Source of the DNA: Xestospongia bergquistia
Taxonomy: Eukaryota > Porifera > Demospongiae > Haplosclerida > Petrosiidae
Assembly: GCA_963965975.1 (NCBI GenBank)
Contig: OZ014415.1
Span: 2,361,001 to 2,425,000, forward strand
Direction: 5' to 3'
Length of the DNA stretch: 64,000 bases
A program made the position numbers and the translations under genes. This document shows, one piece after another, positions 1 through 53,568 of this stretch. The notes beneath the pieces are model-generated. The model worked only from the letters and a program-made list of their open reading frames with translations, did no database searches and had not been told where the DNA came from. How positions within the stretch are numbered: the stretch's first letter is position 1; each line of letters opens with the position of its first letter.

Positions 1-2
1 CA

Positions 3-992
3 AGTTGTTCAATACAAAGTTGTAATGATAGTAAAGCTATAACAGAGTTAGATGAAAAGCTTAGTGCTAAAATTGAAAATGTAACTTCAATACTAGATGA
101 TAATCAAAAGCAACTCAATACAAAGATGAACCAGATTGAAGCAAAACTTGATCGTTTAATGGCACATGCAAATATTACTGATCTCTATCCTCCTTCTTCT
201 CTCCTACACTCCTGTGAGGAGATCAACACTAACTGGCCTGATAGTCCCTCTGACTATTATCTTATAGCTGATACTAATGGACATCCTCGTCATGTCTACT
301 GTCATATGGAATCACTGTGTAATTCTGAAGGAGGTTGGATTAGGGTAGCCTATCTCAACATGTCTGATCCTACAGGGAAATGTCCATCTGGATTTAGAAT
401 ATATAACGAGAGTGGAATAAGAGCATGTGGACGACCAGCATCATCACCAGTTGATAGCTGTCAATCAGTCAAGTTCCCATCCTACAGTATTAGTTACTCT
501 CAAGTATGTGGTCAAGTTATTGGATATCAACATGGATCACCTGATGCCCTTGCTCCTTACCGTTCACAGAAAAATAACCTCAATGGAGCGTATGTTGATG
601 GTGTTAGTCTTACTCATGGTAATCCTCGCAAACATATCTGGACATTTATTGCTGCTCTACAAGAGAATTTTTTCTATTCTAATGGCATACATGAGTGTCC
701 CTGTGCTCCTAACAGTCCTGTGACTGTCCCATCTTTTATTGGTAATGACTACTTCTGTGAATCAGGTTGTCCAGGATATCATGAACTTAATGTCTTCTAC
801 ACTGATCCACTCTGGGATGGTAAACAGTGTGGATTGATAGAGAAATCCTGTTGTCAAGGCCCTGGTCTACCATGGTTCTATAAGACACTTAACTCTCCCA
901 CTACTGACTATATAGAAATGAGAGTATGTGGAGATCAACCTACAACTGATGAAGATTCTCCTGTTGGTTATTATGAGATTTATGTGAAGTAG
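3..992 (+). CDS. Secreted fibrinogen-like protein, array copy 1 (5' end outside window)
   Basis: The reading frame is open from the left edge, so the start codon and signal peptide lie outside the window. What remains matches the intact copies downstream: a Cys-containing linker, a short heptad region ending in QIEAKLDRLM, then a domain of about 245 residues starting YPPSSLLHSCEEI and ending YYEIYVK. The motif order SCEEI, DYY.IADTNG, VYCHMESLCN, GGW is like the N-terminal half of fibrinogen C-terminal (FReD) domains; the second half is cysteine-rich and lacks the usual FReD calcium loop. Family naming is therefore moderate. A role as an extracellular, possibly sugar-binding protein is inference. 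Confidence 0.8.
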   Translation, partial: SCSIQSCNDSKAITELDEKLSAKIENVTSILDDNQKQLNTKMNQIEAKLDRLMAHANITDLYPPSSLLHSCEEINTNWPDSPSDYYLIADTNGHPRHVYCHMESLCNSEGGWIRVAYLNMSDPTGKCPSGFRIYNESGIRACGRPASSPVDSCQSVKFPSYSISYSQVCGQVIGYQHGSPDALAPYRSQKNNLNGAYVDGVSLTHGNPRKHIWTFIAALQENFFYSNGIHECPCAPNSPVTVPSFIGNDYFCESGCPGYHELNVFYTDPLWDGKQCGLIEKSCCQGPGLPWFYKTLNSPTTDYIEMRVCGDQPTTDEDSPVGYYEIYVK

Positions 993-1556
993 GCAAGATT
1001 AAAGAAACTAATGTATTAACTACACACAGGCTAAAATATTGCATACATATTGATTAATAATTATTGAATTTGTTATAAAATTACTACTATGTTTTTTTGT
1101 TACATTTGTAATGAGTTTAAAAAGAGTTTAGAATATAATTACTAAAAATATATCATCTTTCAATCTAGATTTGAGGAAAGTTAATTTTGATAAGGAATAT
1201 CTAAAGTCAATAATTTGATGATATTAATTCTGACTACCAAGGTCTTTTTCAAGGTTTTGACATCAAAACAAGCTATGAATATAATTAAGTTATCAAGTAT
1301 ATCTAAACTGTGGTCAACATAGTGTTTAATTGATTTATCATTGCTTAAGTTGAAAGACAATAAATTCACCTCAAGGTCAAATATCATTGATTATAATGAT
1401 AATAAGTGAATTACCAAAGCTAATACATCCTTAAAGGAGGATCAGTTAGTCACAAATACCAAGTTTATGGTCCTAATCCTCAGCTAATAAAAAGACATTC
1501 AAACATAACAAACTAGCTATTATCTTTTGAGCTGAACAGTGTCTACAGTCTACAAA
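993..1556. other. Intergenic, array copy 1 to copy 2
   Basis: AT-rich, no coding signal seen on either strand. The last 150 bases hold a degenerate copy of the promoter-side module shared by the array (around 1410-1440, with a CCTTAAAGGAGG core). Confidence 0.5.
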
Positions 1557-2526
1557 ATGACATTATTTATTATCTTTGGCCTTGCTATTGGTTTAGTTCA
1601 TGTCAACAGTGACAGTCATGTTGGAGGATGTACAGCTACTTATATAACTACATGACCAATAACTCCTCCTGCACATGGTTCTTATAGTAATGGCAGCATA
1701 GCTATTGAAAAAAACTTGAGCAAGTAAATACAAATATTAACCAGATCAAAGCCAAGCTTGATCATTTAATGGCCCAAGCAAATATTACTAATCTCTATCC
1801 TCCTTCTTCTTTACTACACTCTTGTGAGGAGATCAACACTAACTCGCCTGATAGTCCCTCTGACTATTATCTCACAGCTGATACTAATGGACATCCTCGT
1901 CATGTCTACTGTCATATGGAATCACTGTGTAACTCTGAAGGAGGATGGATGAGGATAGCCTATCTTTACATATCTGATCCCACAGAGGAATGTCCACCTG
2001 GATTTAGACTATATATCCAGAATGGTATAAGAGCATGTGGACGACAACAATCATCACCAGTCTTTTATTGTCAATCAGTCAAGTTCTCCTCCTACAGTAT
2101 CAGCTACTCTCAAGTATATGTAGTCAAGTTATTGGATATCAATACAGATCAACACAATTCCTCTTGACTGTTCATAGAAAATGACCTTTATGGAGCGTAT
2201 GTTGATGGTGTTAGTATAGCTCATGGAAATCTATATTTCATTGCAATGTTGTCATTCATTTACTTTCTTGTTTTTTCTTTCTATATTTATGATGCTATGA
2301 TTACTTGTGATTTGAATGTGTCCTTTACAATATAATGTAGAATGTATTATACTCTGGGAAAGTAAACAGCATGGACTGATAGAGAAGGCCTGTTGTCTAG
2401 TTTACCATAGTTCATAAAACACTTAACTCTCCTACTATTGACTACATAGGAATGAGTGTGTGGATATGAAGTAGGGGAAATAAAGATTCTCCAGTTAATT
2501 ATTTTGAAAGTTATGTTAAATGTTAA
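1557..2526 (+). pseudogene. Fibrinogen-like array copy 2, broken
   Basis: Starts with an ATG and a good signal peptide (MTLFIIFGLAIGLVHVNSDS) aligned with intact copies, but an in-frame TGA follows in the Cys-rich linker (TYITT then stop). The fibrinogen-like domain reopens (about 1769-2167) and reads to TYSQV-like sequence, then loses frame. A central block of roughly 250 bases, including the WTF and CPCAPNSP parts, is replaced or deleted, and the C-terminal LIEKACC and DYIEMR region near 2340-2526 is only recognisable as fragments. Several independent lesions make this an old copy. Confidence 0.85.
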
Positions 2527-3819
2527 ATGATGATAGAAACAATGAAGAGTGAAATAATACTAATAATTACATATGGTTTGTTTTTAATTCATAGAAACCA
2601 TTTAAATAAAAGTTGAAGTCATAAAAGTACAGTGTGAAGTGGGAACATAAAGCAGACAATAACAACACACTATACTTTTAGTCCAAAATATTCAGTAAAG
2701 GAGATGTGCAGGTAATTTTTTACATGTCAAAGTCATAGTATGTACTTGTACATTGATTACATAGATGTAATTGATTGTATAGATACAAGTAGGATTGAAA
2801 ACAGTGCAGTGTGTTAAAGATTATGGCTATTATGACAAATCATTTCATAACAATACACTTGACTACCCTATACCCAATTATTACATGCTTTTCACAGCAA
2901 GAGCGTAGCTGCAAAATTAATATTTGGTCAAGGGCAAAAATTAAAGTGTAAAGTTTGAGTTGTAGAAGTATGTTTTTCATTCACAAAATTTGTATTGCGT
3001 GAAAATTACCAAGTGTACAATAAGTGATGATTTATTTCTTAAAGTTAAATGTAACATTTAACACAAATATTATTATTATCAACATGTATCTGATCTTACA
3101 TGTTAAACACTAAACTAAAAAAATCCTATAACATTTAACAAGACCATAATTTTTTAAAAATCAGTGTTTTAGAAGATACTGACTTCAAACTGAAACACCG
3201 ACTAGAACTACAAAGATTGCATAATTAATAGCAGTGGAAGATTAATAGCTATTGAATGTTAGATATATAGAAGAGCAAGTTAATTCTGTCATACCCATCG
3301 TCATACAATTAGGGCATATGAAATTCATTGGATGTCATATGCGTTGACAGTTAAAGGATGTAGTATTATTTCATTCATCACTCTTGAAAGTCACATACAA
3401 CAATATATTAAAACAATGAAAACAAATATAACCTGTTACACACACATATATATACAAAACATGTGGTTCAAAATGATTAGAGGACCAATATATAATCCAA
3501 TAATATCAGTCTCCATTATTAAAATAATACTAGTTAATTTAATGTGTAAAGTTAACTCTGTAGTAACCTTTGAATCATTAGTATTTTTATGAACAATTAA
3601 AAACTTTTAATGAAGACAACCTTATTAGAAATAACTGATATTTAAACAAGGACAAGTCATCAGTGAACCTACAAATTGAATAAATAACCTTCCACAAATT
3701 TTCCCAAACCATTAAAGGTGACCTCATTATAATAACCAGCTAATTTTGTAAATTATAAAAAAGAAAGTAAAAGTATAGGACCTTTAGTTTAATTCTGTAA
3801 GTAAAGCAGCTATCATCTA
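2527..3819. other. Intergenic, array copy 2 to copy 3
   Basis: No gene seen. The first 300 bases (about 2580-2830) are a diverged copy of the DNA after array copy 6 (about 13010-13110 and 13700-13760), without the fold-back element that sits in that copy. Bases 3380-3490 resemble 44775-44890 and look like a dispersed repeat. A degenerate promoter-side module lies at about 3690-3725. Confidence 0.5.
3380..3490 (+). repeat. Dispersed repeat, copy a
   Basis: Shares a stretch containing CAACAATATATTAAAACAAT and GAAAACAAA with 44775-44890, including spacing of the following AT-rich and ACATGTGGTTCAAAA-like parts. Two copies 41 kb apart in unrelated settings suggest an interspersed element of unknown class. 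Confidence 0.4.
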
Positions 3820-4915
3820 ATGATGCAAATGATGATTCTCTTTGTCTTGGGGTTTGTATTAGGTCTGACTCAAACTGAAAGTAGTAGCAGTTGTACAGCT
3901 ACATGTACATCTACCTGTCCTTCTACTAGTTGTTCAATACAAAGTTGTAATGATAGTAAAGCTATAGTTGAGCTAGGTGAAAAGCTTAGTGCAAAGATTG
4001 AAAACGTAACTTCAATACTTGATGACAGAATGAATCAAAAAGCAACTCAATACAAAGATGAACTAGATCAAAGCCAAGCTTGATCGTTTAATAGCACATG
4101 CTAATATTACTGATCTCTATCCTCCTTCTTCTCTACTACACTCCTGTGAAGAGATCAACACTAACTGGCCTAATAGTCCCTCTGACTATTACCTTATAGC
4201 TAATACTAATGGACATCCTCGTTAAGTCTACTGTCATATGGAATCACTGTGTAACTCTGGAAGAGGACGGATGAGGGTAGCCTACCTCAACATGTCTGAT
4301 CCTACAGAGAAATGTCCACCTGGATTAAAACTATATAACCAGAGTGGAATAAGAGCATGTGGACGATCAACATCATCACCAGCTAATAGCTGTCAATCAG
4401 TCAAGTTCCCCTCCTATAGTATCAGCTATTCTCAAGTATGTGGTCGAGTTATTGGATATCAATATGCATCACCTGATGCTATTAGTCAGCATACTGGAAG
4501 AAGTAAAAGCATTAATGAAGCATATGTTGATGGTGTGAGTCTCACTCATGGTAATCCTCGTAAACATGTCTGGACATTCATCGCTGCTCTACAAGAGAAT
4601 TTCTTTTGGAATCAGAATACTGCATGTCCCTGTGCCCCTAACAGTCCTGTGACTGTTCCATCTTTTATTGGTGGTGACTACTTCTGTGAGTCAGGTTGTC
4701 CTGGAAACTGGCAGTATAATGTCTTATACACTGATCCACTCTGGGATGGTAAACAGTGTGGACTTATAGAGAAGGCCTGTTGTTCTGGTCTACCATGGTT
4801 TAATAAGACATTTGACTTTCCCACTACTGACTATATAGAAATGAGAATATGCGGAGATGAAGCAGCAGGAAACGAAGATTCTCCAGTTGGTTACTATGAG
4901 ATATATGTTAAATGA
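3820..4915 (+). pseudogene. Fibrinogen-like array copy 3, lightly broken
   Basis: Begins with a signal peptide (MMQMMILFVLGFVLGLTQTE) and a CTATCTSTCPS linker nearly identical to the linker of copy 1. Two lesions are visible. An extra A in an A-run near 4038-4042 (five A where copy 1 has four) shifts frame just before the coiled coil. A TAA at about 4223 replaces the His codon in HPRHVYC. Everything after that reads open to a normal YYEIYVK end with typical loops. Because the damage is so light, this may be a recent loss, a polymorphic allele or partly an assembly error. The 3' flank is nearly the same as that of copy 5 (8432-9499). Confidence 0.85.
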
Positions 4916-5060
4916 TGAACACATTGATAATTAAAATATAATACATAATTACAATAAAATAATTAATTTTTTGGCTAATATTTAATTATTTTTGATACAA
5001 AAATGATTTAAATTTAACTGAAGCCACTAGAGATTAGAGTGCAAGGAATGGCTAACTAAA
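4916..5060 (+). repeat. Duplicated 3' flank shared with 9500-9650
   Basis: Starts GATGAACACATTGATAATTA right after the stop and runs to the block ending GGCTAACTAAACAATAATAT; the same order is found after the stop at 9499. It shows that array copies 3 and 5 derive from one duplication of gene plus downstream DNA. Confidence 0.85.
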
Positions 5061-5091
5061 CAATAATATATCTGGATAAAAGCACTATTGG

Positions 5092-5325
5092 AGTGTATGT
5101 TGATGGTGTTAGTCTTATTCATGGTAATCCTCGTCAACTTATCTGGACATTTATAGCTGCTATACAAGAGAACTATTTCTCTTACAATGGTCACCAAAAG
5201 TGCCCTGTGCTCCTAACAATCCTGTGACTGTTCCATCTTTTATTGGTAATGCCTACTTCTGTGAATCATGTTGTCCTGGAAACTGGCACTATAATGTCTT
5301 ACACACTGATCCACTCTTGGATCAG
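5092..5325 (+). pseudogene. Fibrinogen-like fragment (middle part only)
   Basis: Encodes relics of the segment from YVDGVSL through WTFIAAIQENYF, CPCAPN, VTVPSFIGN and TDPL, cut at both ends. A base is missing in the CPCAPN region so frame changes midway. No start, no signal peptide and no C-terminus. It lies directly after the duplicated flank of copy 3. Confidence 0.8.
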
Positions 5326-6010
5326 TCATTATAATACATTTAATTTGACTGTTCTATCTTTAATATGAAGTACAAACACAAGTGGTCCAATACATTTACA
5401 TAATGATTCTTTTGATTTCAAGAATAAATATCAATCAACTATTCATAGCTACATACATACAGTAAATTTAAGAGAGGGCAGTTCTATGACTGTGTTTACT
5501 TATTACTTTACCATTTAATAGTCCAGAGTCAACATATTTAAAACTAAATAAATTGTGAAACATCTCTGTGGTTAACATTGTATCAACAAGAATCTATAAT
5601 TAATAGTAATAGCATTATTAGTAGAAAAATCATGTAATGTAATTATTGTTATAGTATAAAAAGTAAAAATAGTAGTAAGTCTTATATATGTATTAGTATA
5701 TAGAAACAATTTTCTTTTCATGCATAATTTAGTTTTAATAAAACAGATTACATAAACCTTCACAAAAAATTATTATAGATTTGCAGTTTTTAATAAATCA
5801 GTTAAGTGCTTCGTATCAGATATCAGATCTACTGAACAACACAAGTATTCACATGTACTATAATCAATTATGCAAATATAATGTAAATTGATAACTATGA
5901 ATCTAATTAACGAATCTGACCGTATATTTTAATTAAGCGATTTAATAAAAGATAATTCCCACTGTTGTGTGTATCTTATGATTTACGCGAGATGTTATCT
6001 AAACTGAAAA
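5326..6010. other. Intergenic
   Basis: AT-rich, nothing coding seen. It directly precedes an intact gene and so should hold its promoter, but the promoter-side module of the other copies is not clearly recognisable here. Confidence 0.4.
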
Positions 6011-7042
6011 ATGCTGACAGTCATTATCTGTAGTATTGCTATTGGTTTAGTTCTTGTCAATGGTGACAGTCATACTGGAGGCTATACAGATACAAGTACA
6101 TGTCCAATAACTCCTCCTAGACATGGTTTTTGTAGCAATGACAGTTTACCTATCGAAAAAGGATTCAAGCAACTTGATACAAATATTAAGACCAAGATTA
6201 ATCATTTAATGGAACATACAAATATTACCAATCTCTATCCTTCGTATTCTCTTCTCCATTCCTGTGAAGAGATCAACACTAACTGGCCTGATAGCCCCTC
6301 TGACTACTACACCATAGCTGATACTAATGGAGATCCTCATCATGTCTACTGTCATATGGAATCACTGTGTAATTCTAGTGGAGGATGGATGAGATTAGCC
6401 TGCCTTAACATGTCTGATCCTACAGAGGAATGTCCACCTGGATTTAGACTATATAATCAGAATGGAATAAGAGCATGTGGACGACCAGTATCATCACGAG
6501 CTGGTTACTGTCAATCAGTCAAGTTCCCCTCCTACAGTATCAGCTACTCTCAAGTATGTGGTCAAGTTATTGGATATCAATATGGATCACCAGATGCTAT
6601 TGCTCGACAACGTCCACATAAAAATCTCAATGGAGAGTATGTTGATGGTGTTAGCATAACTCGTGGAAATCGTCGTAGACATATCTGGACATTTATGGCT
6701 GCTATACAAGAAAATACCATTCTATTTGGAGGTCAAAGTCAATGTCCTTGTGCTCCTAACAATCCTATGACTATTCCATCTTTTATTAGTAATAATTACT
6801 TCTGTGAGTCAGGTTGTCCTGGAAGCTGGCAACATAATGTGTTATATACTGGAGACCCACTCTGGGATGGTAAACAGTGTGGACTGATAGAGGAGGCTTG
6901 TTGTCAAACTCCTGGTCCACCATGGTTCCATAAGATACTTAAGTCTCCTACTACAGACTATATAGAAATGAGAATATGTGGAGATCAACCAACAAATGAT
7001 GAAGACTCTCCCATTGGATTTTATGAGATATACGTAAAATAG
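6011..7042 (+). CDS. Secreted fibrinogen-like protein, array copy 4 (intact, 343 aa)
   Basis: Single-exon gene. Residues 1-18 form a signal peptide (MLTVIICSIAIGLVLVNG). A Cys-containing linker and a short heptad region (KGFKQLDTNIKTKINHLM) follow, then the fibrinogen-like domain from SCEEI near residue 87 to the end. The linker here has lost the usual CTATCTATC pattern (YTDTSTCP), so chain-to-chain disulphides may differ. Loop 1 is ARQRPHKNL and loop 2 is TILFGGQSQ, unlike any other copy. Extracellular location follows from the signal peptide and many paired cysteines; binding target unknown. The start is the only Met in frame before the signal peptide. Confidence 0.88.
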   Translation: MLTVIICSIAIGLVLVNGDSHTGGYTDTSTCPITPPRHGFCSNDSLPIEKGFKQLDTNIKTKINHLMEHTNITNLYPSYSLLHSCEEINTNWPDSPSDYYTIADTNGDPHHVYCHMESLCNSSGGWMRLACLNMSDPTEECPPGFRLYNQNGIRACGRPVSSRAGYCQSVKFPSYSISYSQVCGQVIGYQYGSPDAIARQRPHKNLNGEYVDGVSITRGNRRRHIWTFMAAIQENTILFGGQSQCPCAPNNPMTIPSFISNNYFCESGCPGSWQHNVLYTGDPLWDGKQCGLIEEACCQTPGPPWFHKILKSPTTDYIEMRICGDQPTNDEDSPIGFYEIYVK

Positions 7043-7254
7043 TAAAGACTGTTACATTATATACATGTAATTATATTCCTGCTAAAAATTTGGAATTAAA
7101 ACTTAAAAATTTTCCATTTAGTTATAAAAAGATCAATTTTTTTATGAGAGAAGTGCTGTCATTTACTACCCCTACATTATATTCCTGATAAAATTTGGAA
7201 TTAAAACTTTTATGCTAGTTACATGTAGAATAGATCACACATCAAAAGTTATCC

Positions 7255-7356
7255 AACCAGAATGGAATATAAGCATGTGGATGTCCAGCATCATCACCAC
7301 ATTATTGTCCATCAGACAAGTTCCCTCTCCTACAATATCAGCTAGTTTCAAGTATG
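7255..7356 (+). pseudogene. Fibrinogen-like short relic
   Basis: About 100 bases align with the region from NQNGIRACGRP through QSVKFPSYSIS of the family, with small indels. No other part of the gene is left beside it. Confidence 0.75.
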
Positions 7357-8431
7357 ACTAGAGCTGAGGCTATTAATAAGACTAGTATATCAAACTAGTT
7401 TAGTTAACATAATGCTTTAAACAATTTTTATAATAACTAATACCATTCCTAATCATATTATCTACTTCAGCGAAAAAAAAAACTGTTTCTCATTACTAGA
7501 AGACTACCACAAGTTATTTATTGAATAATTAACACAAGGTCGAACAGTCATTATCTACCATGACTAAATAAATGTCTCTCCATAAATGGTCTTAGACATA
7601 ATACCTCCTAGATATTCTCAGTCACATATTAACACAATTCACCAAAAAAAGTCAAACTGACAACATACAGTTTAACTTTAAAATGTTTGAGTTAAAGGTG
7701 ACTTTATTGAAGGGCAGTTTGACTATGTTAACAGCAAATACCATAACAAAGAAAGTAAAGAGAAGTCACTATTGGAGAGTGGATATTACTGGATAAAATA
7801 CAAATAAATTTATAATAAGACATATTGAAAGAAAGGAATGAACTACCAATAACAACATGTAATTTGCTTTGATTTCCCTTGATTCAAAAACATTATATTC
7901 AATCTCACTTTTAAAAGAACATGTGGCATTAAAACATGCTATTATAACACTTGCCTTTAATTATATTGAAACATTTACAGACCAACTTAAAGGAAAATGG
8001 TTGTGCTCTGACATTAAAGTATTGATATTTGAAGGCATCAAATTGTTAGGGCACAACAAGACACCCAAGCAATCAATTGCTTGTATATAATGAACCAATG
8101 AAGACTCCATGTAAACATTACAGCAGTTAAAAAGACTGGAGATATGTCTAATATATTAACTTAGTTGTTATCAAATATAAAACAGTATTAGCTTTAAAAA
8201 AGTGATGCTTATTTTTTAGTACCAGAAAAGTATTAAACTATTTATTTGTATCTTAACAAACCACTATCTCATGTTACATTCCTCAAGAGAGAACACTACC
8301 ACAACTATTGAACTAGACCATGAAGCCAAACTAATTGAATGTCACTCTACAAACTTTCTCAGATCTAATACTTCCTTCAGTTTAAGTCAAGTTTAAGAAG
8401 GGATTCTCAGTAATACATTTCATATTTTTAA
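7357..8431. other. Intergenic with promoter-side modules
   Basis: No coding signal. A degenerate promoter-side module is seen near 7565-7620 (ATAATACCTCCTAGAT) without a gene after it, and a better one at about 8270-8385 (CTACAAACTTTCTCAGATCT then ACTTCCTTCAG), 50-75 bases before the next start codon. Confidence 0.5.
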
Positions 8432-9499
8432 ATGAAATCGTCCCACTTACGAAAGAAAATGCCTGCCAATTGCAAAATGTTATTTCTTCTTATGTTGGGT
8501 TTTTGTATGGAATTACTTCATATCAATGGTGACAGTCATACTGGAGGATGTACAGCTACTTGTATAGCTACATGTCCTATTACCACTTCTAAACAAGGAT
8601 GTAGTGACTGTAAGGAAATTGAAGATAAGCTCCAACAACTAGATGCTAAACTTGATCGTTTAATGGCACATGCAAATATTACTGATTTCTATCCTCCTTC
8701 TTCTCTCCTACACTCCTGTGAGGAGATCAACACTAACTGGCCTGATAGTCTCTCTGACTATTATCTCATAGCTGATACTAATGGACATCCTCGTCATGTC
8801 TACTGTCATATGGAATCACTGTGTAACTCTGGAGAAGGATGGATGAGGGTAGCCTACCTCAACATGTCTGATCCTACAGAGGAATGTCCACCTGGATTTA
8901 GACTATATAACCAGAGTGGAATAAGAGCATGTGGACGACCAACATCATCACCAGCTAATACCTGTCAATCAGTCAAGTTCCCCTCATATAGTATCAGCTA
9001 CTCTCAAGTATGTGGTCGAGTTATTGGATATCAATATGCATCACCTGACGCCATTGTACCTCATAGTGGAAGAAGTAAAAGCATTAATGGAGCATATGTT
9101 GATGGAGTGAGTCTCACACATGGTAATCCTCATAAACATATCTGGACATTTATGGCTGGTCTACAAGAAAACTACTTCACTTATAATTACGGTGCACATG
9201 ATTGTCCATGTGCTCCTAACAGTCCTGTGACTGTTCCATCTTTTATTGGTGGTGACTACTTCTGTGAGTCAGGTTGTCCTGGAAAATGGCAGTTTGATGT
9301 CTTATACACTGATCCACTCTGGGATGGTAAACAGTGTGGACTGATAGAGAAGCCCTGTTGTCAAGCTCCTGGTCTACCATGGTTTAATAAGACACTTGAC
9401 TTTCCCACTACTGACTATATAGAAATGAGAATATGTGGAGATGAAGCAGCAGTAAATGAAGATTCTCCTGTTGGTTATTATGAGATTTATGTTAAATGA
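8432..9499 (+). CDS. Secreted fibrinogen-like protein, array copy 5 (intact, 355 aa)
   Basis: Single exon. The first Met (8432) precedes a basic stretch; Met codons at 8459 and 8477 give shorter, more standard signal peptides (core MLFLLMLGFC). In related copies the start reads ATGTGCAAAATG; here the aligned first codon is AATTGC, so the ancestral start is lost and 8459 is my preferred start, with 8432 possible. CTATCIATCP linker, coiled-coil heptads (IEDKLQQLDAKLDRLM), then the fibrinogen-like domain. Loop 1 is VPHSGRSKSI, loop 2 is TYNYGAHD. An AATAAAA signal lies about 40 bases after the stop. The closest relative by loops and flank is broken copy 3. Confidence 0.88.
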   Translation: MKSSHLRKKMPANCKMLFLLMLGFCMELLHINGDSHTGGCTATCIATCPITTSKQGCSDCKEIEDKLQQLDAKLDRLMAHANITDFYPPSSLLHSCEEINTNWPDSLSDYYLIADTNGHPRHVYCHMESLCNSGEGWMRVAYLNMSDPTEECPPGFRLYNQSGIRACGRPTSSPANTCQSVKFPSYSISYSQVCGRVIGYQYASPDAIVPHSGRSKSINGAYVDGVSLTHGNPHKHIWTFMAGLQENYFTYNYGAHDCPCAPNSPVTVPSFIGGDYFCESGCPGKWQFDVLYTDPLWDGKQCGLIEKPCCQAPGLPWFNKTLDFPTTDYIEMRICGDEAAVNEDSPVGYYEIYVK

Positions 9500-11566: not shown

Positions 11567-11687
11567 AGGACTTTTCAGTTATTCTAAGTTTGTTGTGCCT
11601 AAAATCCTTAGTTTATGAAAGGGCACTCACAAAAAAGAAGTGTCAGTTCTCTATCTACTGAGCTAAAGAGTCCCTGCAACAATAGAA

Positions 11688-12942
11688 ATGCTAACTGTCC
11701 TTATCTTCAGCTTTGTTGTCACTCTAGTTCATGCTAATATTGCTAGTATGTTAAACAACTATTCAACTACTATCTCACTGCAACAGGCTATACCTAACCT
11801 CACTATACTAGTCAATGACACGTTGACCAAGTCTGCTCAGAGTTGTCTAGCTAATGCTGATAGCAGTAGTAATGTTGCTATCTTAGTACAACTAACAATG
11901 ATGCATCAACTACTCAATCACAACCAAACGAATAAAAGAAGTTGCTGTCCTATACAGAATAGTAATAATGATAGTAAAGCTATTATAAAACTTGGTGAAA
12001 AACTAGTACAAAGATCGAAAAAGATTCAACTGCATAGAAGCAAACTTGAAGAATATGTTTGATGTCAAGATAGACAAACTCACAGCTAAAGTAAATCATT
12101 TGATGACAGTGACTAATACCACTAAACCCACTGACTATCCTCCTTCTTCTTTACTACACTCCTGCGAGGAGATCAACACTAACTGGCCTGATAGTCCCTC
12201 TGACTATTACATCATAGCTGATACTAATGGACATCCTCGTCATGTCTACTGTCATATGGAATCACTGTGTAACTCTGGAGGAGGATGGACGAGGGTGGCC
12301 TGTCTTAACATGTCTGAACCTACAGAGGAATGTCCACCTGGATTTAGACTATACAAAGAGAATTGAATAAGAGCATGTGGACGACCAGCATCATTATCAG
12401 CTGGTTACTGTCAATCAGTCAAGTTTCCCTCCTACAGTATCAGTTACTCTCAAGTATGTGGTCGAGTTATTGGATATCATTATGGATCACCTGATGCCGT
12501 TCATTCTCATTCACAGTCAAATAACCTCGATGCAGCATATGTTGATGGTGTTAGTATTACTTGTGGTAATCCCCATCACCATATCTGGACATTTATAGTT
12601 GCTCTACAAGAGAATAATTTTGCTAGTGACAGTAACAATGAGTGTCCCTGTGCTTCTAACAGTCATGTGACTGTTCCAACTTTTATTAGTAATGATTACT
12701 TCTGTTAGTCTGGTTGTCCTGGACAATTTCAAGCAAATGTATTTTATTCTGAGGACCCACTCTGGGATGGTCAACAGTGTGGATTGATAGAATAGGCCTG
12801 TTGTCTAGCTCCTGGTCTACCATGGTTCTATAAGACATTTAACTTTACCACTACTGACTATATAGAAATGAGAGTATGTGGAGATGAAGTTAGCAGTTTG
12901 TAAGACTCTCCAGTCGGTTATTATGAAATTTATGTTAAGTAA
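11688..12942 (+). pseudogene. Fibrinogen-like array copy 6, broken
   Basis: Begins with a signal peptide (MLTVLIFSFVVTLVHANI) and an unusually long Asn/Thr/Ser-rich linker of about 100 residues that the other copies lack. A frameshift near 12050 separates it from the heptad region and fibrinogen-like domain. The domain carries at least four in-frame stops: TGA after RLYKEN, TAG in YFC.SGCPG, TAG in LIE.ACC, and TAA in the acidic end. All family landmarks to YYEIYVK are still present in order, so the copy died fairly recently. Its 3' flank is related to that of copy 2. Confidence 0.88.
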
Positions 12943-13168
12943 TGAACATATTTAGAGACATTGAAGAGTAAAACATTACTAATTACATTTGATTTGTTAG
13001 ATTTCCTTTTTAACTCAAAGAAACTATTTTAATAAAAGCTGAAGTTACTAAAGCACAGTGTGTGGGGGGTGGGGGGGGGTGGAAATATAAAGGAGACAAA
13101 GACAGCATACTATACATAACGTGACAGAAAGTCAATCTTCTTTTTTACAAGCATATGTATATATTTTA

Positions 13169-13690
13169 CAGTAAGATTGTGAAACTAGGGATTCCCTAAA
13201 ACCTTCAGTAAATTCATGAAATGACTATTTTACTTAGGGATTTTTGAATTCACTAAAATCTCTAGGGATTTCGTGTAATTACTGAAATAATACTCTATTT
13301 TTTGCGAAATCACTGTTATTCAAATTTTAGCCATAAATAATAACACTAAATTTATCTGTAAGCAATTATCATTCATCATATTCATTAATAATTCAACAGC
13401 TTCTGTTGTGATATTATCATATTAAAATTATATAACACTAGTCATTATTATAAATAAATAAACTAAAACTAAACTATCAAAAAAATAATTTTATGTACCT
13501 CACTATGTTATTTCACAATCTTCCTAATATGGATCTAGTGAAGTTGAGAAATAAAACATTTTTTCAGTAATTACACGAAATCCTTAGAGATTTTAGTGAA
13601 TTCATGAAATTCTTAAGTAAAACAGTCATTTCACGAATTTACTGAAAGTTTTAGGGATTTTGTGAAATCCCTAGTTTCACAATCTTACTG
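13169..13690. mobile_element. Fold-back MITE with TA target duplication (mariner-like ends)
   Basis: Two inverted arms of about 120-130 bases (13169-13288 and 13562-13690) begin CAGTAAGATTGTGAAACTAG and are flanked on both sides by TA (13167-13168, 13691-13692). CAGT ends plus a TA duplication suit Tc1/mariner-type non-autonomous elements. The core (about 270 bases) is AT-rich with no transposase. The related flank after broken copy 2 (2.6-2.8 kb) lacks it, so it inserted after that duplication. Confidence 0.85.
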
Positions 13691-13799
13691 TAACATATAT
13701 ATATATGTACAGGTAATTAATTGTATGGATACAAGCACAATTGAAAGGTGGTGCAGCTTAATACTTTCTAGATTGTCGGTGACTATTTTATGTACAGAC

Positions 13800-13895
13800 C
13801 AATATACCAGGCCCTCTGATTATTACATCATAACTAATAAAAATGGACATAATAGACCATGTATTATGAGAACATGTATTAAATCAGTAATATTT
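13800..13895 (+). pseudogene. Fibrinogen-like short relic
   Basis: About 80 bases encode RPSDYYIITNKNGHN, matching the SPSDYYIIADTNGHP part of the family. Then it decays. No start and no other domain parts. Confidence 0.6.
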
Positions 13896-14039
13896 TTTAA
13901 TAAACAGTGCTGTGTTAAGTATGAAGGCACAAAACTGTGATAAGCACATTCAACTGTATCATGAATGAATTATACAATAAATTATTAGAGTATCCTGTGT
14001 CAATTTTTAATCTATCACTAGCACCATTTATCTTTGGCA

Positions 14040-14330
14040 AACCATGTATGAAGTAGCTCAAATAAAATTGCCAGTTTGTTAAGCTATACTATACAACAAC
14101 CTAACAACTCTCTACAGTTTATATAAATGACTTCATTAATGACATACATGACAACCACTGAGTATTACAGCTGTGCCTTTTATCATGTGAGTACCATCAC
14201 CATTCTAGTCACAACTAATTTATGACCTTACATCCAAGTCTTCTATAAACTTTCCCAAACACATCACATGATTAAGGGTCAATACTTTGCTAGCATCTGC
14301 AACTTATTAAGGTTTATAAACGACACCTAA
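14040..14330 (+). repeat. Upstream duplication unit, copy b (with 10970-11240)
   Basis: Same blocks as 10970-11240 in the same order, ending about 50 bases before the start codon at 14382. Includes CTATAAACTTTCCCAAACAC, the core of the promoter-side module. Confidence 0.85.
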
Positions 14331-14381
14331 AACAATTAAGTTTGTGCAGTAGCTATTACACAGTATTATCTAACTAAAAAA

Positions 14382-15422
14382 ATGCTGGCAGTCATTATCT
14401 TGGGTCTTGCCATTGGCTTAGTTCATGTCAATAGTGACACTCAAACTGGAAGATGTACAGCTACTTATGCAACTATATGTCCTATGGATCCTCCTATACC
14501 TACTTCTTGTAGTTGTGACAGTTTAGCTATTGAAAAAAGATTCAAGCAACTCGATACAAAGATGAACCAGATTGAAGCCAAACTTGATCGTTTAATGACA
14601 CATGCAAATATGACCAATCTCTATCCTCCTTCTTCTCTACTACACTCCTGTGAGGAGATCAATGCTAACTGGCCTGATAGTCCCTCTGATTATTACATCA
14701 TAGCTGATACTAATGGACATCATCGTCATGTCTACTGTCTTATGGAGTCACTGTGTAACTCTGAAGGAGGATGGATGAGGGTAGCCTATCTCAACATGTC
14801 TGATCCTACAGAGGAATGTCCACCTGGATTTAGAGAATATAACCAGAGTGGAATAAGAGCATGTGGACGACCAGCATCATCAGATAATAGCTGTCAATCG
14901 GTCAAGTTCCCTTCCTACAGTATCAGCTACTCTCAAGTATGTGGTCGAGTTACTGGATATCAATATACATCACCTGATGCCATTAATCCTCGTTCACAGT
15001 CAAATAACCTTAATGGAGCATATGTTGATGGTGTTAGTCTTACTCATGGTAATCCTCGTAAACATATCTGGACATTTATGGCTGCTCTACAAGAGAACCA
15101 TTTCTCTGACCATGGTTACCAGGAGTGTCCCTGTGCTCCTAACTGTCCTGTGACTGTTCCATCTTTTATTGGTAATGACTACTTCTGTGAGTCAGGTTGT
15201 CCTGGAAACTGGCAGAGTAACATCTTATACACAGATCCACTCTGGGATGGTAAACAGTGTGGACTGATAGAGAAGGCCTGTTGTCAAGCTCCTGGTCTAC
15301 CATGGTTTAATAAGACACTTAACTCTCCTACTACTGACTATATAGAAATGAGAGTGTGTGGAGATCAATCTACAAATGATGAAGACTCTCCTGTTGGCTA
15401 TTATGAGATTTATGTGAAGTAG
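14382..15422 (+). CDS. Secreted fibrinogen-like protein, array copy 7 (intact, 346 aa)
   Basis: Single exon; signal peptide MLAVIILGLAIGLVHVNSDT, Cys-rich linker (CTATYATICP and SCSCDS), heptad region KRFKQLDTKMNQIEAKLDRL, then the fibrinogen-like domain. Compared with other copies it has an extra Cys (PNCPVTV instead of PNSPVTV) and a two-residue shortening after CGRPASS. Loop 1 is NPRSQSNNL and loop 2 is SDHGYQE. N-glycosylation sequons are visible (NMSD, NKTL). Likely secreted and multimeric through the coiled coil; target unknown. Confidence 0.9.
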   Translation: MLAVIILGLAIGLVHVNSDTQTGRCTATYATICPMDPPIPTSCSCDSLAIEKRFKQLDTKMNQIEAKLDRLMTHANMTNLYPPSSLLHSCEEINANWPDSPSDYYIIADTNGHHRHVYCLMESLCNSEGGWMRVAYLNMSDPTEECPPGFREYNQSGIRACGRPASSDNSCQSVKFPSYSISYSQVCGRVTGYQYTSPDAINPRSQSNNLNGAYVDGVSLTHGNPRKHIWTFMAALQENHFSDHGYQECPCAPNCPVTVPSFIGNDYFCESGCPGNWQSNILYTDPLWDGKQCGLIEKACCQAPGLPWFNKTLNSPTTDYIEMRVCGDQSTNDEDSPVGYYEIYVK

Positions 15423-16058
15423 TAGTTGTTTGATTTTTATACAAAATAATTGTACTAGTGTTCAAATTAGATTGCTGCTAAAATTTATAAAAACTTGAAA
15501 ATTTTTAATATAAATGGTACATCCTTATTACTCAAATAAACAATTAAATTAATCAGATTAGCCAATTAAAAAATTAAAAGCTCCAGTAAAAATACTAGAG
15601 ATAGAGGATGGACTAGTTTGAAAAAAATCCCTCAGATACTGGATAGTTCTAATTCAATGCAGTATGTATGTTAATAGTCGTTACAACTGATAGTAAAGAA
15701 GACCTATATTGTTAAGGTAGGAGGAGCAACTGGAGGAGCTATTCAATTAAATCTTAAAAATAACAGAACAAAAGATACTGTTGCTAGGTTACATGATATT
15801 TAATAGTATCATTAGTGTGCTAAGCCATTTATGCATATCTGCTCAACACACCCAGTAATGTAAACAGAAAAAGCCAAGTATTATAGTATTACCCTTGTAC
15901 CTTAGCAAACCACAAACTATTGAGCCAGACCACAAGTGATTAACATGAAAATCCCTTTACAAAGTTCCCAACTTCCTTAACAGGGACCCAACTTACTGAA
16001 AATGATCATGAACCAATAAGACATTATTTCATATTCAGTTGAGCTAAGAGCACCTACC
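15423..16058. other. Intergenic
   Basis: No gene. The last 160 bases resemble the upstream regions of other copies (CCACAAACTATTGAGCCAGA near 15912, then CCCTTTACAAAGTTCCC near 15952). Confidence 0.5.
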
Positions 16059-16250
16059 ATGTGCAAAATGTTATTCCTCTTATTATTGGGTCTTTGTATA
16101 GAATTACTTTGTGTCAATGGTAACAATCATATTAGAAGATGTATAGCTACATGCCCAATAATCCCTCCTACACGTGGTTCTTGTAGTAATGACAGTAACA
16201 CTGTTGAAAAAAGTTAGCACAAATCAATACAAAGATAAGCCAAATTGTTT
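16059..16250 (+). pseudogene. Fibrinogen-like N-terminal relic
   Basis: Keeps a start and signal peptide (MCKMLFLLLLGLCIELLCVN), the linker (RRCIATCP) and the beginning of the heptad region, ending in a TAG after NTVEKS. The whole fibrinogen-like domain is missing; AT-rich sequence follows. The promoter-side module is present upstream. Confidence 0.8.
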
Positions 16251-16675
16251 GATTTCAAAATTTAGATTAAATGAATAAATTTATCAACCATACATAATAA
16301 CAGTGAATAAATGAATGTTATTTATTGTACAAGAAAAAGCCACAAAACATTTGTGGATGCCTAGTCTCCTTAACAGAAATGCATTCACTTATTACTTTCT
16401 TGTGTTAAGCAAGTGGGCATCTGAAGACAAAAGTAATGGTGCCTTCATGTATACTGAAACCTGTTACATCCCACCCATATAGTAGTATTCAACAAGGTAG
16501 TGACCCTAACTGTGAAAAGATGTCATTATCTAAACTTTCTCAAACCAAATATCTCCTTCAAAAAGGAAATTTAAGTGACAAACGACTTCTTCATGGCCTA
16601 TATAATCCCAAGACTATAAAAGAAAAGCTTACCATGTAAGATTAGTGTGAGCAAAGACAATCCACGAAGAAAGAA
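16251..16675. other. Intergenic with promoter-side module
   Basis: No gene. The module is well kept at about 16525-16566 (CTAAACTTTCTCAAACCA then TCTCCTTCAAAAAGGA), about 110 bases before the next start. Confidence 0.5.
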
Positions 16676-17713
16676 ATGCTGACATTCATTATCTTGGGTC
16701 TTGCCATTGGCTTAGTTCATGTCAATGGTGACAGTCATACTGGAGGATGTACAGCTACTTGTACAGCTACATGTCCAATAATCTCTCCTAAACATGATTT
16801 TTGTAATAATGACATCATGGTTATTGAAAAACGATTCAACCAACTCAATACAAAAATGAACCAGATTGAAGCTAAGCTTGATAGTTTGATGGTGAATGGA
16901 AATATTACCGATCTCTATCCTCCTTCTTCTCTCCTACACTCCTGTGAGGAGATCAAGACTAACTGGCCTGATAGTCCCTCTGACTATTACCTCATAGCTG
17001 ATACTAAAGGACATCCTCGTCACGTCTACTGTCATATGGAATCACTGTGTAACTCTGAAGGAGGATGGATGAGGATAGCCTACCTTAACATGTCTGACTC
17101 TACAGAAGAATGTCCACCTGGATTTAGACTATATAACCAGAATGGAATAAGAGCATGTGGACGACCAGAATTATCACCAGCTAATAGCTGTCAATCAGTC
17201 AAGTTTTCTACATACGGTATCAGTTATTCTCAAGTATGTGGTCGAGTTATTGGATATCAATATGGACATCCTGACTCTCTTTTTCCTGGACGTAACATTA
17301 ATGAAGCATATGTTGATGGTGTTAGTCTTACTCATGGTAATCCTCGTAAACATATCTGGACATTTATGGCTGCTCTGCAAGAGAACTATTTCTATCAAAA
17401 TGGTGTTCATGAGTGTCCTTGTGCTCCTAACAGTCCTGTGACTGTCCCATCTTTTATTGGTAATAACTACTTCTGTGAGTCTGCTTGTCCTGGACACTGG
17501 CAAAGGAATAAATTCTATCCCGGGGATCCACTTTGGGATGGTAAACAGTGTGGACTGATAGAGAAAGCATGTTGTCTAGCTCCTGGTCTACCATGGTTCC
17601 ATAAGACACTTAGCTCCCCCATTACAGACTGTATAGAAATGAGAATATGTGGAGATGAACCAGGGACACCCGAAGACTCTCCAGTAGGCTACTATGAAAT
17701 CTATGTTAAGTGA
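16676..17713 (+). CDS. Secreted fibrinogen-like protein, array copy 8 (intact, 345 aa)
   Basis: Single exon. Signal peptide residues 1-17 (MLTFIILGLAIGLVHVN), CTATCTATCP linker at 25-34, heptads about 51-72, fibrinogen-like domain 81-345. Conserved landmarks: SCEEI (89-93), VYCHMESLC (117-125), RACGRP (159-164), YSQVCGRVIGYQYG (184-197), YVDGVSLTHG (212-221), CPCAPNSP (247-254), DPLWDGKQCGLIE (284-296), MRICGD (322-327), YYEIYVK (339-345). Loop 1 (about 200-210, SLFPGRNI) is three to five residues shorter than in the other copies. Loop 2 is YQNGVHE. Its downstream flank of 850 bases is duplicated after broken copy 9. Confidence 0.9.
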   Translation: MLTFIILGLAIGLVHVNGDSHTGGCTATCTATCPIISPKHDFCNNDIMVIEKRFNQLNTKMNQIEAKLDSLMVNGNITDLYPPSSLLHSCEEIKTNWPDSPSDYYLIADTKGHPRHVYCHMESLCNSEGGWMRIAYLNMSDSTEECPPGFRLYNQNGIRACGRPELSPANSCQSVKFSTYGISYSQVCGRVIGYQYGHPDSLFPGRNINEAYVDGVSLTHGNPRKHIWTFMAALQENYFYQNGVHECPCAPNSPVTVPSFIGNNYFCESACPGHWQRNKFYPGDPLWDGKQCGLIEKACCLAPGLPWFHKTLSSPITDCIEMRICGDEPGTPEDSPVGYYEIYVK

Positions 17714-18560
17714 TGAACATTATAAGCGCCATATTGAGAGGAATATGTAGATTATATGTTTGATTATTTCTTTTGATTCAATAATGTTTAAAGCTAAATT
17801 TAAAGAAGGGAGGGAGTGCTAAAATACAATGATTGTAGGCGATGCCTCCAATTGCCAACCCAAAGAATTTTTATAGATTGATTCTGAGATTTAACAGCAA
17901 CCAATTAAAACCTTAGTCCAAGACTCAAGTTGTTGCCTATCGCTACATTTGACCTCAATTAGTGTTCATTTAAATCTCAAATATTAGTTGCTTTGTAAAC
18001 TACTTGATGCTGGAAACCAATGACTTTTAATTTATAAAGAAAAGGTCAGCAACATTATTACTGTATTGTCATTATAGTCATCAACAAGACATAGTTTAAT
18101 AAATTAACTAACTCATCCATTTATTGGCTTGCAAATATTTAAACTGCCAACAAGTTTTAATGCTATTGCCTACCAAATACTATTAAACAATGCAATTATA
18201 TCTTGTTTAAAAAAACACCAGTTAAATCTGTGTCAGATGCATACATGTGTCATCGAAAGATTCATTCTTTTTTAGTTATTTCTAGACTCTTAATAGCCTA
18301 CCAATAGCCAGTAGTAAGGGGAGATGGTAAATCCTCCATCACCTATGTTTTGTGCTATACACTTGCAAGCTAAACATATATATACAAGTCATTTTTGAAG
18401 GTCAATGTTAACAAAATGTTTTGCTTAATTTTAATAGTAGCATAGAACTATAGAATCAAGAGTATTAGCATGAATAAGTAGTTACAACTGTCACACATAT
18501 AGTATGTATGTGTTCAACACTACAAAAGCATTCACATAAGCATCATTGTGTACATTCTAA
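17714..18560 (+). repeat. Duplicated 3' flank, copy a (with 21056-21720)
   Basis: Blocks such as TGCCTCCAATTGCCAA, TTTAAAAAAACACCAGTTA, GTGTCAGATG and CATTTTTGAAGGTCAA occur in the same order and orientation at 21140-21580. The match ends near 18545, just before the relic at 18575. No coding signal in it. Confidence 0.85.
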
Positions 18561-18574
18561 ATGAAGGTAAATTA

Positions 18575-18861
18575 GACACTGTGAGGAGATCAAGACTAAC
18601 TGGCCTGATAGTCCCTCTGACTATTATATCATAGCTGATACTAATGGACATCCTTGTCATGTCTACTGTCATATGAAATCACTGTGTAACTCTGAAGGAG
18701 GATGGATGAGGGTAGCCTACTTCAACATGTCTGACCCTACAGAGGAATGTCCACCTGGATTTAGACTATATAACCAGAATGGAATAAGAGCATGTGGACG
18801 ACTAGAATTATCATCAGCTAATAGACTATTCATTTTTTCCAAAAACAATTACTTAAAATAA
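18575..18861 (+). pseudogene. Fibrinogen-like fragment (N-terminal half of domain)
   Basis: Reads open from the CEEIKTNWPDSPSDYY part through VYCHMKSLCN to RACGRLELSSAN, then breaks off into unrelated AT-rich sequence. The RLELS variant points to copy 8 (RPELS) as the closest relative. No start, no signal peptide and no second half of the domain. Confidence 0.8.
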
Positions 18862-19995
18862 ACAATTGCCACTTCAAAAAGTTATATATAGATAGTGCTC
18901 AGTTGCAATGTTGTAGAGACTATGAATTATGTTGGAAGTGACAAATTGTAGGATCAAAAGATTGGAACCTTTAGATATGAAAGAGACTACTTGAAAAGAG
19001 GAATTAGAGAAATTTACCCAAATAAGAGTACCGTTACATAATAATCATATATGGCGAATTAAAAGAAATATTATTTAGAAGTTTTATAGTATTTATGAAT
19101 ACTAGTAATATACTTAAGTGTTAAAATGTATATTGTACATTAACACGTTGTACAGTATAGAGTTATAGTATTGTCCAATTCAATTATCATAGGATGTTGG
19201 AGATAATATTAATAACATTACTAACTTTAAAACTAATGTCAGCACCAGCAATTGTACCTTAGTAAATCCCTTTCTCATGACAAGTTACTTCCTTCCACAC
19301 CACCAAATATTGCGTCAGACCATAATGCTATTATCCTTAAGACTATATGAATGTCCCTCTACAAACTATTCAAACCTAATACCTCATTCAAGATTGGACC
19401 TCTAAGTAATCAAAAACTTATTTAAAAAATATATTTATACCATTGCCAACGATATTATCACTATTATATTATAATTATTACTATTATAGTTTTGTTTTTC
19501 ATGAAAAACAAAACTACCACAAACACTTGTTTCTCAAAACCCCTTAATTCCTTCAAGAGAGAAGATTATTACAAGCTATCAAGCCAATAAAACAAGGTCA
19601 GTCATTAACCTCAATGATAAAAAATTGTCCCTCAGTAAACTTTCTCACACATAATATCTCCTTCTACACACCCAATAATGATCACTGCAAAACATCAAAC
19701 ATTAAAGTATTATCTGTACTTCCTAGTAAATCAGACAAAGTAAAGACAACTTATCTCTCCCTCAAGAGAAAGACAACCATAAATTATTGAGTCAAGCCAC
19801 AAGTGGTTAACTTTGAAAACTATCTGAACATCCTTCTCCAAACTTCCAGCCTAATACCTCCTCCAATGGGGATTTCTAAGTAATACACAATGTATTTGTG
19901 ACTGACATACACAACCATACATAAAAGAGCCATACAAAATATAACATTTTACTAGGGTGATTTTTTATAATAGTTTGAGCTATAGAGTGTCTACC
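18862..19995. other. Intergenic with repeated promoter-side modules
   Basis: No gene. Three successive degenerate copies of the upstream module lie near 19330-19400, 19590-19660 and 19790-19880 (each with a CTACAAACT- or TCCAAACTT-like core followed by AATACCTC or AATATCTCC). This suggests several dead promoters stacked ahead of copy 9. A short hairpin TTTTGTTTTTCATGAAAAAC lies near 19492. Confidence 0.5.
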
Positions 19996-21055
19996 ATGTG
20001 CAAATTGCTACTCTTCTTAGCATAGAGGCCTTAATATATTAGGCCTTAGCATAGAGTTACTTCATGTCAATAGTGACAGTCATACTGGAGGATGTACAGC
20101 TACTTATACAACTACATGTCCCAATAATCCTCTAACATCTACTTCTTGTACCAATGAAAGTTTAGCTATTGAAAAAAGATTCAAGGAACTCAACATAAAA
20201 ATGCGGCAGATTGAAGCAAAACTTGATCATTTAATGGCACGTGCAAATATTACTGATCTCTATCCTCCTTCTTCTCTCCTACACTCCTGTGAAGAGATCA
20301 ACACTAATTGGCCTAATAGTCCCTCTGACTATTATATCATAGCTGATACTAATGGACATCCTCGCCATGTCTACTGTCATATGGAATCACTGTGTAACTC
20401 TGGAGGAGGATGGATGAAGGTAGCCTACTTCAACATGTCTGATCCTACAGAGAAATGTCCGCCTGGATTTAGACTATATAACGAGAATGGAATAAGAGCA
20501 TGTGGACGACCAGCATCATCACCAGCTAATAGTTGTCAATCAGTCAAATTCTCATTCCACAGTATTACTTACTCTCAAGTATGTGGTAGAGTTACTGGAT
20601 ATCAATGTGTGTCATCGAACATTGAAACATATTGTCAACCTAAAAATAACCCCATTGGAGCATTTGTTGATGACGTTATAATAACTCGTGGTAATCCTCG
20701 TAAACATATCTGGACATTTATGACTAGTCTACAAAAGAACTACTTCCAAAAAGGTGGGCAATGTGTGTGTCCTTGTGCTTAAAAGAGTCCTTTGACTGTC
20801 CCATCTTTTATCAGTAAAGACTACTTTTGTGAACCAGTTTCTTCTGGACAATTTCAACAATTTCAATTCTTTTTTTGTACTGGTCCTCTCTGGGATGATA
20901 AACAATGTGGACTGATAGAGACAGTCTGTTGTCAAGACCTACCATGGTTTCATAAGCCACTTAACTCTCCCATTACTGACTATATAGAAATGAGAGTGTG
21001 TGGAGATGGAGTAAAAGACACACAAATTGCTTATTATGAGTTCTATGTTAAATAA
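19996..21055 (+). pseudogene. Fibrinogen-like array copy 9, lightly broken
   Basis: Starts ATGTGCAAATTGCTACTC but meets TAG after nine residues; a 30-base local duplication (GGCCTTA twice) has disturbed the signal peptide. From about 20045 the frame is open through the linker, heptads and first two thirds of the domain. It hits TAA at 20780-20782, in the CPCA-PNSP motif, and then runs open in the same frame to YYEFYVK. Its loops are strongly diverged (SSNIETYCQPKNN), GCPG is replaced by SSGQ, and the second half differs most of all copies. Confidence 0.85.
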
Positions 21056-53474: not shown

Positions 53475-53568
53475 AAACAATGACTTAATGCTCACAAAAT
53501 GTTATGGTATGTTTGTCTCTGGTTTGATTAGCAAGAGTAACAGTCTACTCAACATATGAAAATAATTT

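What the first reader, a model, noticed from the sequence alone, without database searches (positions are those of the whole stretch)
1..21055. Fibrinogen-like tandem family with constant frame and short hypervariable loops
Across intact and broken copies the domain is nearly identical except for a few short patches. Loop 1 between GYQYG.PDA and YVDGVSL reads ARQRPHKNL, VPHSGRSKSI, NPRSQSNNL or SLFPGRNI. Loop 2 between LQENYF and CPCAPN reads YQNGVHE, TYNYGAHD, SDHGYQE or ILFGGQSQ. A third patch follows CPG (HWQRNKF, KWQFDVL, SWQHNVL). A fourth lies before EDSPVGYY. Variation limited to loops in a secreted, coiled-coil, disulphide-linked protein is what diversified recognition molecules such as snail FREPs show. 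The reading as a sponge self/non-self or microbe-binding repertoire is inference.
Basis: partly seen in the sequence, partly recalled or inferred. Interest (0 to 1): 0.85.

Follow-up and report, generated by a model that had tools for sequence, protein, structure and literature searches.

The report
Sponge lectin-like genes with variable loops
A chromosome, most likely of a sponge, carries a row of very similar, probably secreted binding proteins that differ mainly in four or five short loops, as expected of a recognition repertoire; only a small part of each protein resembles fibrinogen, and the whole domain also occurs in some bacteria.

Summary
The window has the second part of a 62-kb array of 14 intact open-frame copies (five in the window, one across its left edge) and 18 broken stretches. 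Over the 14 copies the frame is 86% identical, loops L1-L4 34%. The same loops vary in other arrays sampled, L1 excepted in two of six groups.

The rest, which holds the loops, is a predicted beta-sandwich (pLDDT 92, pTM 0.90) without a Pfam match in the window copies. Fold matches are weak; procollagen C-propeptides (stalk, base, petal trimers) align with most residues. Relatives over the whole domain exist in Myxococcota.

Loop dN/dS (0.53) exceeds the frame (0.20, p 2e-7) but is below 1; the synonymous rate is also 2.5 times higher in loops, and copies clearly recombine. Positive selection is shown at two sites only.

Best reading: a secreted oligomeric lectin-like recognition repertoire. 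Ligand and role (microbes, food, self) are not shown. It is not a FREP. Loops lie between strands; clustering on one face was not measured.

The parts
1..992 (+). intact copy, 3' part (ORF starts 102 bases before the window; C5:2360898-2361992); L1 552-581, L2 669-695, L3 777-803, L4 936-950
1557..2523 (+). broken copy (pieces in several frames, part of the domain missing)
   Evidence: tblastn pieces 1557-1724, 1709-2266, 2352-2396, 2413-2520
3820..4915 (+). broken copy (frame change between about 4032 and 4082, stop just before 4226; the rest reads open)
5090..5322 (+). fragment of a copy
6011..7042 (+). intact copy, 343 aa; L1 6602-6628, L2 6716-6742, L3 6824-6853, L4 6986-7000
8477..9499 (+). 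intact copy, 340 aa (an in-frame ATG also lies at 8459); L1 9056-9085, L2 9173-9202, L3 9284-9310, L4 9443-9457
11688..12942 (+). broken copy of the type with the long N-terminus
   Evidence: ORF 11667-12062 and tblastn 12034-12939; stops inside
14382..15422 (+). intact copy, 346 aa, used as reference and folded; cap about residues 84-130, sandwich 131-346; L0 14874-14891, L1 14985-15011, L2 15099-15125, L3 15207-15233, L4 15366-15380
16059..16216 (+). N-terminal fragment of a copy (read by eye, not returned by tblastn)
16676..17713 (+). intact copy, 345 aa; L1 17282-17299, L2 17387-17413, L3 17495-17524, L4 17657-17671
18571..18801 (+). fragment of a copy (cap and start of the sandwich)
20036..21055 (+). 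broken copy (stop near 20780); last copy of the array

Best explanation
The locus is a tandem array of secreted, oligomeric, lectin-like recognition proteins. Shown by sequence or computation: a hydrophobic N-terminus, cysteines and a heptad-bearing helix, a short cap shared with fibrinogen, intelectin and bacterial GGGW proteins, then a predicted beta-sandwich; variation concentrated in loops between strands; recombination between copies; the same loops variable in other arrays sampled. Inferred: secretion; that the helix is a stalk joining (probably three) chains, as in procollagen C-propeptides; that the loops line the ligand site at the outer end of each petal; that each copy binds a somewhat different ligand, most likely microbial or algal surface glycans met by a filter feeder; and that duplication and gene conversion reshuffle loops on a shared frame while selection keeps loop variants.
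For: Loop concentration. Same patches vary in other arrays: C9/C2 group of 8, frame 0.20 vs L1 0.60, L2 0.59, L3 0.50; C2 7.7 Mb group of 5, frame 0.13 vs L2 0.65, L4 0.80; C11 group of 3, frame 0.10 vs L1 0.46, L2 0.43. L1-L4 lie outside predicted strands of three or more residues, with nearly invariant columns close by. omega loop 0.53 vs frame 0.20, p 2e-7; M2a over M1a 2dlnL 26.9, two sites, one in L2 and one in L3. Recombination: PHI 0 of 1000 at 50 and 100 nt; copy C5:2341044 has the L1/L2 regions of C5:2337260 (96%, 95%) and the L3/L4 regions and N-terminus of C5:2355184 (94%, 92%, 91%). Protein P0019, listed on a contig of the same length (852,434) as exact copies of two window proteins, differs from copy C5:2321994 at 10 of 33 loop and 7 of 227 frame residues (p 3e-6). 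Heptads (no shuffled control) and helix 45-74. Fold matches are beta-sandwich binding domains, among them carbohydrate-binding modules, lectins and procollagen C-propeptides.
Confidence: 0.5

Rival explanations
1. Loops are simply less constrained: tandem copies drift, recombination homogenises the frame, and length-tolerant loops accumulate changes without any role in specificity.
For: omega of loops below 1 and synonymous rate raised with it; pairwise dN/dS 0.65, bootstrap 0.40-0.97; many broken copies (18 stretches).
Against: Two sites with omega about 6.8; some loops little changed in near-orthologues while the rest changed (P0007, P0036), which free drift would not favour; the same loops vary in other arrays. 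L0 has omega 2.3 but is not different from 1 (p 0.09).
Confidence: 0.25
2. Structural or matrix role: procollagen-propeptide-like trimerising heads of a secreted matrix, glue or aggregation material, the loops setting which chains pair, as the chain recognition sequence does in procollagens.
Confidence: 0.1
3. Polymorphic self/non-self (allorecognition or gamete) ligands rather than microbe binders.
For: A contig with exact copies of two window proteins also carries copies that differ from ours (P0019, P0023, P0027, P0039), consistent with haplotype-level variation; sponges do show specific allorecognition (PMC5450542, passages).
Against: That contig's origin is inferred from its length; no population, expression or graft data. 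The main text of that graft study has no word beginning with fibrinogen or lectin.
Confidence: 0.08

Closest known systems
Placozoan intelectin-like proteins (up to 31 genes, Trichoplax sp. H2; PMC6321704, section 9 read)
   Same: Secreted, short FReD of up to 70 residues only at the N-terminus, C-terminal part of their own, about 10 conserved cysteines, clustered genes
   Different: Said to lack coiled coils; loop-limited variation not described in the section read; sequences not compared here
Fibrillar procollagen C-propeptide (COLFI; 5k31, 4ae2)
   Different: About 10-12% identity, no collagen triple helix seen, Z in the range the tool calls common
Intelectin-1 / XEEL (X-type lectins; 4wmq, 4wmo)
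   Same: Cap: best sequence match, profile hit E 4e-7 over profile positions 92-179
   Different: No sequence match in the carbohydrate-binding remainder
NCBIfam NF040941 GGGWT_bact and Myxococcota proteins that carry it (L059-L066)
   Same: Cap plus the sandwich, with motifs such as YVDGxSxTxG, CP and ED; 24-37% identity
   Different: Part of larger bacterial proteins; no tandem array noticed in the stretches read
Snail FREPs (PMC7588048, passages)
   Same: Fibrinogen-type label, coiled-coil region, diversified; gene conversion reported
   Different: FREPs have IgSF domains and a relatively conserved fibrinogen domain; here no IgSF and the variation sits in the globular domain

Membership tests
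Fibrinogen_C / FReD (PF00147) | match over the curated cut-off | tested here: not met
   one of six window proteins matches at all, 13.5 of 22 bits, profile 4-44; 25 of 107 relatives match at E up to 1, best E 0.011
Fibrinogen_C / FReD (PF00147) | fibrinogen globular fold beyond the N-terminal subdomain | tested here: inconclusive
   sequence profile hits end at the cap; ficolins and Angptl4 appear low in the fold lists
FREP | IgSF domain(s) upstream of a fibrinogen domain | tested here: not met
   no IgSF match in six window proteins, nor among the 25 families shown of 92 matched by 107 relatives
Intelectin (X-type lectin) | similarity across the whole carbohydrate-recognition domain | tested here: not met
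   profile match to 4wmq covers profile positions 92-179 of 366 only
GGGWT_bact (NF040941) | 46-residue cap over the 30-bit cut-off | tested here: not met
   five window copies 19.5-27.7 bits; three bacterial relatives 53.8-62.3; 128 of 129 rows of A2 match at E up to 1
COLFI | C-propeptide fold (stalk, base, petal) | tested here: inconclusive
COLFI | follows a collagen triple helix | tested here: not met
   no Gly-X-Y run seen by eye in the 14 copies
Placozoan intelectin-like family | short N-terminal FReD plus a C-terminal part alike in sequence | not tested
   description in PMC6321704 fits; no placozoan sequence was compared
Diversified recognition repertoire (works like) | loop-limited diversity above the frame | tested here: met
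Diversified recognition repertoire (works like) | positive selection on the loops as a whole | tested here: not met
   omega loop 0.53, below 1; two single sites positive
Diversified recognition repertoire (works like) | variable loops on one face | not testable with these tools
   coordinates are not returned; strand parity suggests one pole, by inference

The most novel reading that the evidence does not exclude
Sponges use a cap-plus-sandwich domain, shared over its whole length with Myxococcota and so possibly moved once between bacteria and early animals, as the scaffold of a germline recognition repertoire with over a hundred listed places in this genome: trimers with a coiled-coil stalk and three petals, whose four or five tip loops are reshuffled between copies by gene conversion and differ between haplotypes.
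Probability: 0.2. Interest if true: 0.9.

Novelty: new variant of a known kind. Interest (0 to 1): 0.6.

Why it matters
Sponges discriminate self and respond to microbes, but diversified receptors are hard to name in them. This array gives a concrete, cloneable set of 14 natural loop variants on one frame, so binding specificity can be tested directly. It also shows that proteins called fibrinogen-like or intelectin-like in early animals may share only a cap, and that the loop-bearing domain, without a Pfam match in the window copies, has bacterial relatives over its whole length.

Tried and rejected
Snail-FREP membership and a full fibrinogen domain were considered and rejected (see membership tests). 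A simple positive-selection story was tested three ways and held only for two sites: pairwise counts, site models with a tree per segment (branch lengths fixed up to a scale per segment, posterior without correction for parameter error), and loop/frame partition models. Decay of synonymous diversity away from the loops was looked for and not found (within 10 codons 0.153, beyond 0.172, p 0.71), so the raised synonymous rate is confined to the loops and may partly be alignment or saturation. Viral fold library: no match at E up to 0.001. Identifying the species from chromosome sizes in print failed. In the library searched no paper held two of the terms GGGW, fibrinogen-like, Myxococcota. The first fold (full length) gave no fibrinogen or intelectin among the 50 rows shown; the domain-only fold did, so absence in the first lists was not used.

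Rows dropped before counting: 22 of the 120 P proteins and 5 of the own-genome copies had no recognised domain start, and only pairs at 85-99.99% domain identity were counted (13). In one search the truncated L033 and L048 rows were left out and L024 stood in no group. Alignments A1 and A2 used 103 of the 120 listed relatives (short or duplicate ones left out).

Full report
What is there. The window is G000:C5:2361001-2425000 of a 146-Mb genome in 21 contigs. A tblastn scan of C5:2311001-2425000 with the protein of 14382-15419 finds an array from C5:2320098 to 2382055 with 14 intact copies (start, no internal stop, same end) and 18 broken or fragmentary stretches by my grouping. Five intact copies and six of the broken stretches lie in the window; the first intact one starts 102 bases before it. 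All 14 read as one open frame of 340-433 codons; there is no transcript to confirm it. A whole-genome search lists 119 matching places (117 of 770 first-look candidates were scored), among them more on C5 and groups on C9, C2, C4, C11 and C1; by the tool's own note such counts are lower bounds, and broken copies are included.

Host. Relatives of a flanking UNC-93-like gene (61159-62214): the only 2 of 79 hits with an organism name shown are from the demosponge Amphimedon queenslandica, at 56% and 52% identity. A sponge is therefore likely; the species is unknown.

Anatomy. Each protein has a hydrophobic N-terminus, 3-6 cysteines before the domain, a heptad-bearing stretch (hydrophobic residues at 67-100% of a and d positions in the best window; no shuffled control) that AlphaFold2 draws as a helix at residues 45-74 of the reference copy, and a domain of about 260 residues with 15-18 cysteines. 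Two copies (433 aa) have a longer region before the domain. No Pfam match is over cut-off in six window proteins. By profile, similarity to solved proteins runs over positions 92-179 of 366 for intelectin (E 4e-7), and fibrinogen chains align up to position 153. The NCBIfam cap model GGGWT_bact (46 positions) matches 128 of 129 rows at E up to 1, the five window copies below its cut-off. So only the start of the domain is fibrinogen-like.

Where the loops are. In the folded copy L0 is residues 165-170, L1 202-210, L2 240-248, L3 276-284 and L4 329-333. L1 to L4 lie outside predicted strands of three or more residues (L3 holds one isolated bridge residue, L2 a three-residue helix); L0 ends where the next strand begins. 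Nearly invariant columns lie close by, and one (a tyrosine) lies inside L3. If strands alternate and the first and last sandwich strands are antiparallel neighbours, as in galactose-binding-like sandwiches (recalled, not tested), all five patches fall at one pole. Coordinates are not returned, so this was not measured.

How variable. See the observation check. The pattern recurs in other arrays that I could read: C9/C2 group (8), C2 7.7 Mb (5), C11 (3), and in part in C9 6.4 Mb (3) and C9 6.6 Mb (2), where L1 does not vary.

Selection. Pairwise dN/dS is 0.65 in L1-L4 (codon bootstrap 0.40-0.97) and 0.24 in the frame; singly L0 3.73, L1 0.61, L2 0.82, L3 0.41, L4 1.07. Partition models with one tree per segment give omega 0.53 against 0.20 (p 2e-7), loop omega below 1 (p 2e-4), and a synonymous rate 2.5 times the frame; if synonymous rates are forced equal, loop omega is 1.14 but the fit is far worse (2d 30). 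Taken singly the excess over the frame is clear for L0 and L2, weaker for L1 (p 0.012), and not significant for L3 (p 0.17) and L4 (p 0.054). Site models prefer a class with omega 6.8 on 0.9% of sites (2dlnL 26.9); two sites exceed 0.9 posterior, one in L2, one in L3. L0 has omega 2.3, not different from 1 (p 0.09). So the loops evolve faster and less constrained, with little direct proof of positive selection.

Recombination. In the PHI test no permutation of 1000 reaches the observed value at 50 and 100 nt, 6 of 1000 at 200 nt. Copy C5:2341044 is a mosaic: its L1 and L2 regions match C5:2337260 at 96% and 95%, its L3 and L4 regions and N-terminus match C5:2355184 at 94%, 92% and 91%. A protein from another assembly contig, P0039, reads like the N-terminus of one array copy (C5:2321994) joined to the domain of its neighbour (C5:2320098) (read by eye). 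Gene conversion or unequal crossing over thus shuffles loop sets between frames; which of the two is not settled.

Between assemblies. The protein list gives, for each hit, the length of its longest contig. One length (852,434) comes with exact copies of two window proteins and with copies that differ. I take it as one contig of another haplotype or individual; this is inference. P0019 from it differs from C5:2321994 at 10 of 33 loop residues and 7 of 227 frame residues (p 3e-6). Over 13 near pairs the loop rate is 0.274 against 0.085, but of the five closest, three show no significant excess. Some loops are thus kept and some change fast.

Bacterial relatives. A pattern-limited scan of one genome for each of 84,980 prokaryote species gives 52 stretches, of which 8 encode a relative, all in records titled Myxococcota, Myxococcales or Deltaproteobacteria MAGs, 24-36% identity; five match from residue 5-10 to 263, two from 41 to 263, one 20-162. 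Three of the eight frames printed carry DCDD-rich repeats upstream, and the cap is above the GGGWT_bact cut-off in the three tested. In an unrooted tree of 23 rows the 11 own-genome rows and three unnamed proteins form one group (96/90) apart from the bacterial rows. Direction of transfer is open. A search with one of these proteins finds 104 proteins; 5 cover the whole query stretch, the others a part, mostly the cap.

Known kin. PMC6321704 (section 9 read) describes up to 31 placozoan intelectin-like genes whose fibrinogen-related part is short and N-terminal, with a C-terminal part of their own. This is probably the same kind of protein, so the family as such may not be new; I did not compare sequences. 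In one of two sponges tested, D. avara, several fibrinogen-domain genes respond to microbial patterns (PMC6208332, passages); these carry PF00147, whose cut-off the present family does not reach.

Mechanism. Most likely a secreted multi-armed lectin, loops as ligand site, repertoire built by duplication and shuffling. Shown: order of parts, loop concentration, recombination, raised loop omega. Inferred: secretion, oligomer, ligand class, site, function.

Noticed in passing
window 46056-62217: Several UNC-93-like transporter ORFs on both strands that look alike (46056, 49720, 55505, 61159); of the two searched, 61159-62214 matches PF05978 and 46056-47423 does not reach the threshold
   Followed up: partly
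window 44296-44682 (-) and 43167-43556 (-): Likely exons of a sirtuin gene: the first matches PF02146, the second has no match at E 0.001 but looks like a continuation
   Followed up: no
window 30321-30725 (-): Exon of a RIMC1 homologue (PF17716)
   Followed up: no
window 37078-37644: Repeat that is open on both strands as a repeated peptide (NHTTCNIST-like); by appearance a minisatellite
   Followed up: no
G000 C8 and C15 (and other contigs): A separate, very large family with Fibrinogen_C matches over cut-off (151 matches) in arrays elsewhere in the same genome; none of the listed rows lies on C5
   Followed up: no
L059-L066: Relatives of the domain in Myxococcota, three of them with DCDD-rich repeats upstream
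   Followed up: partly
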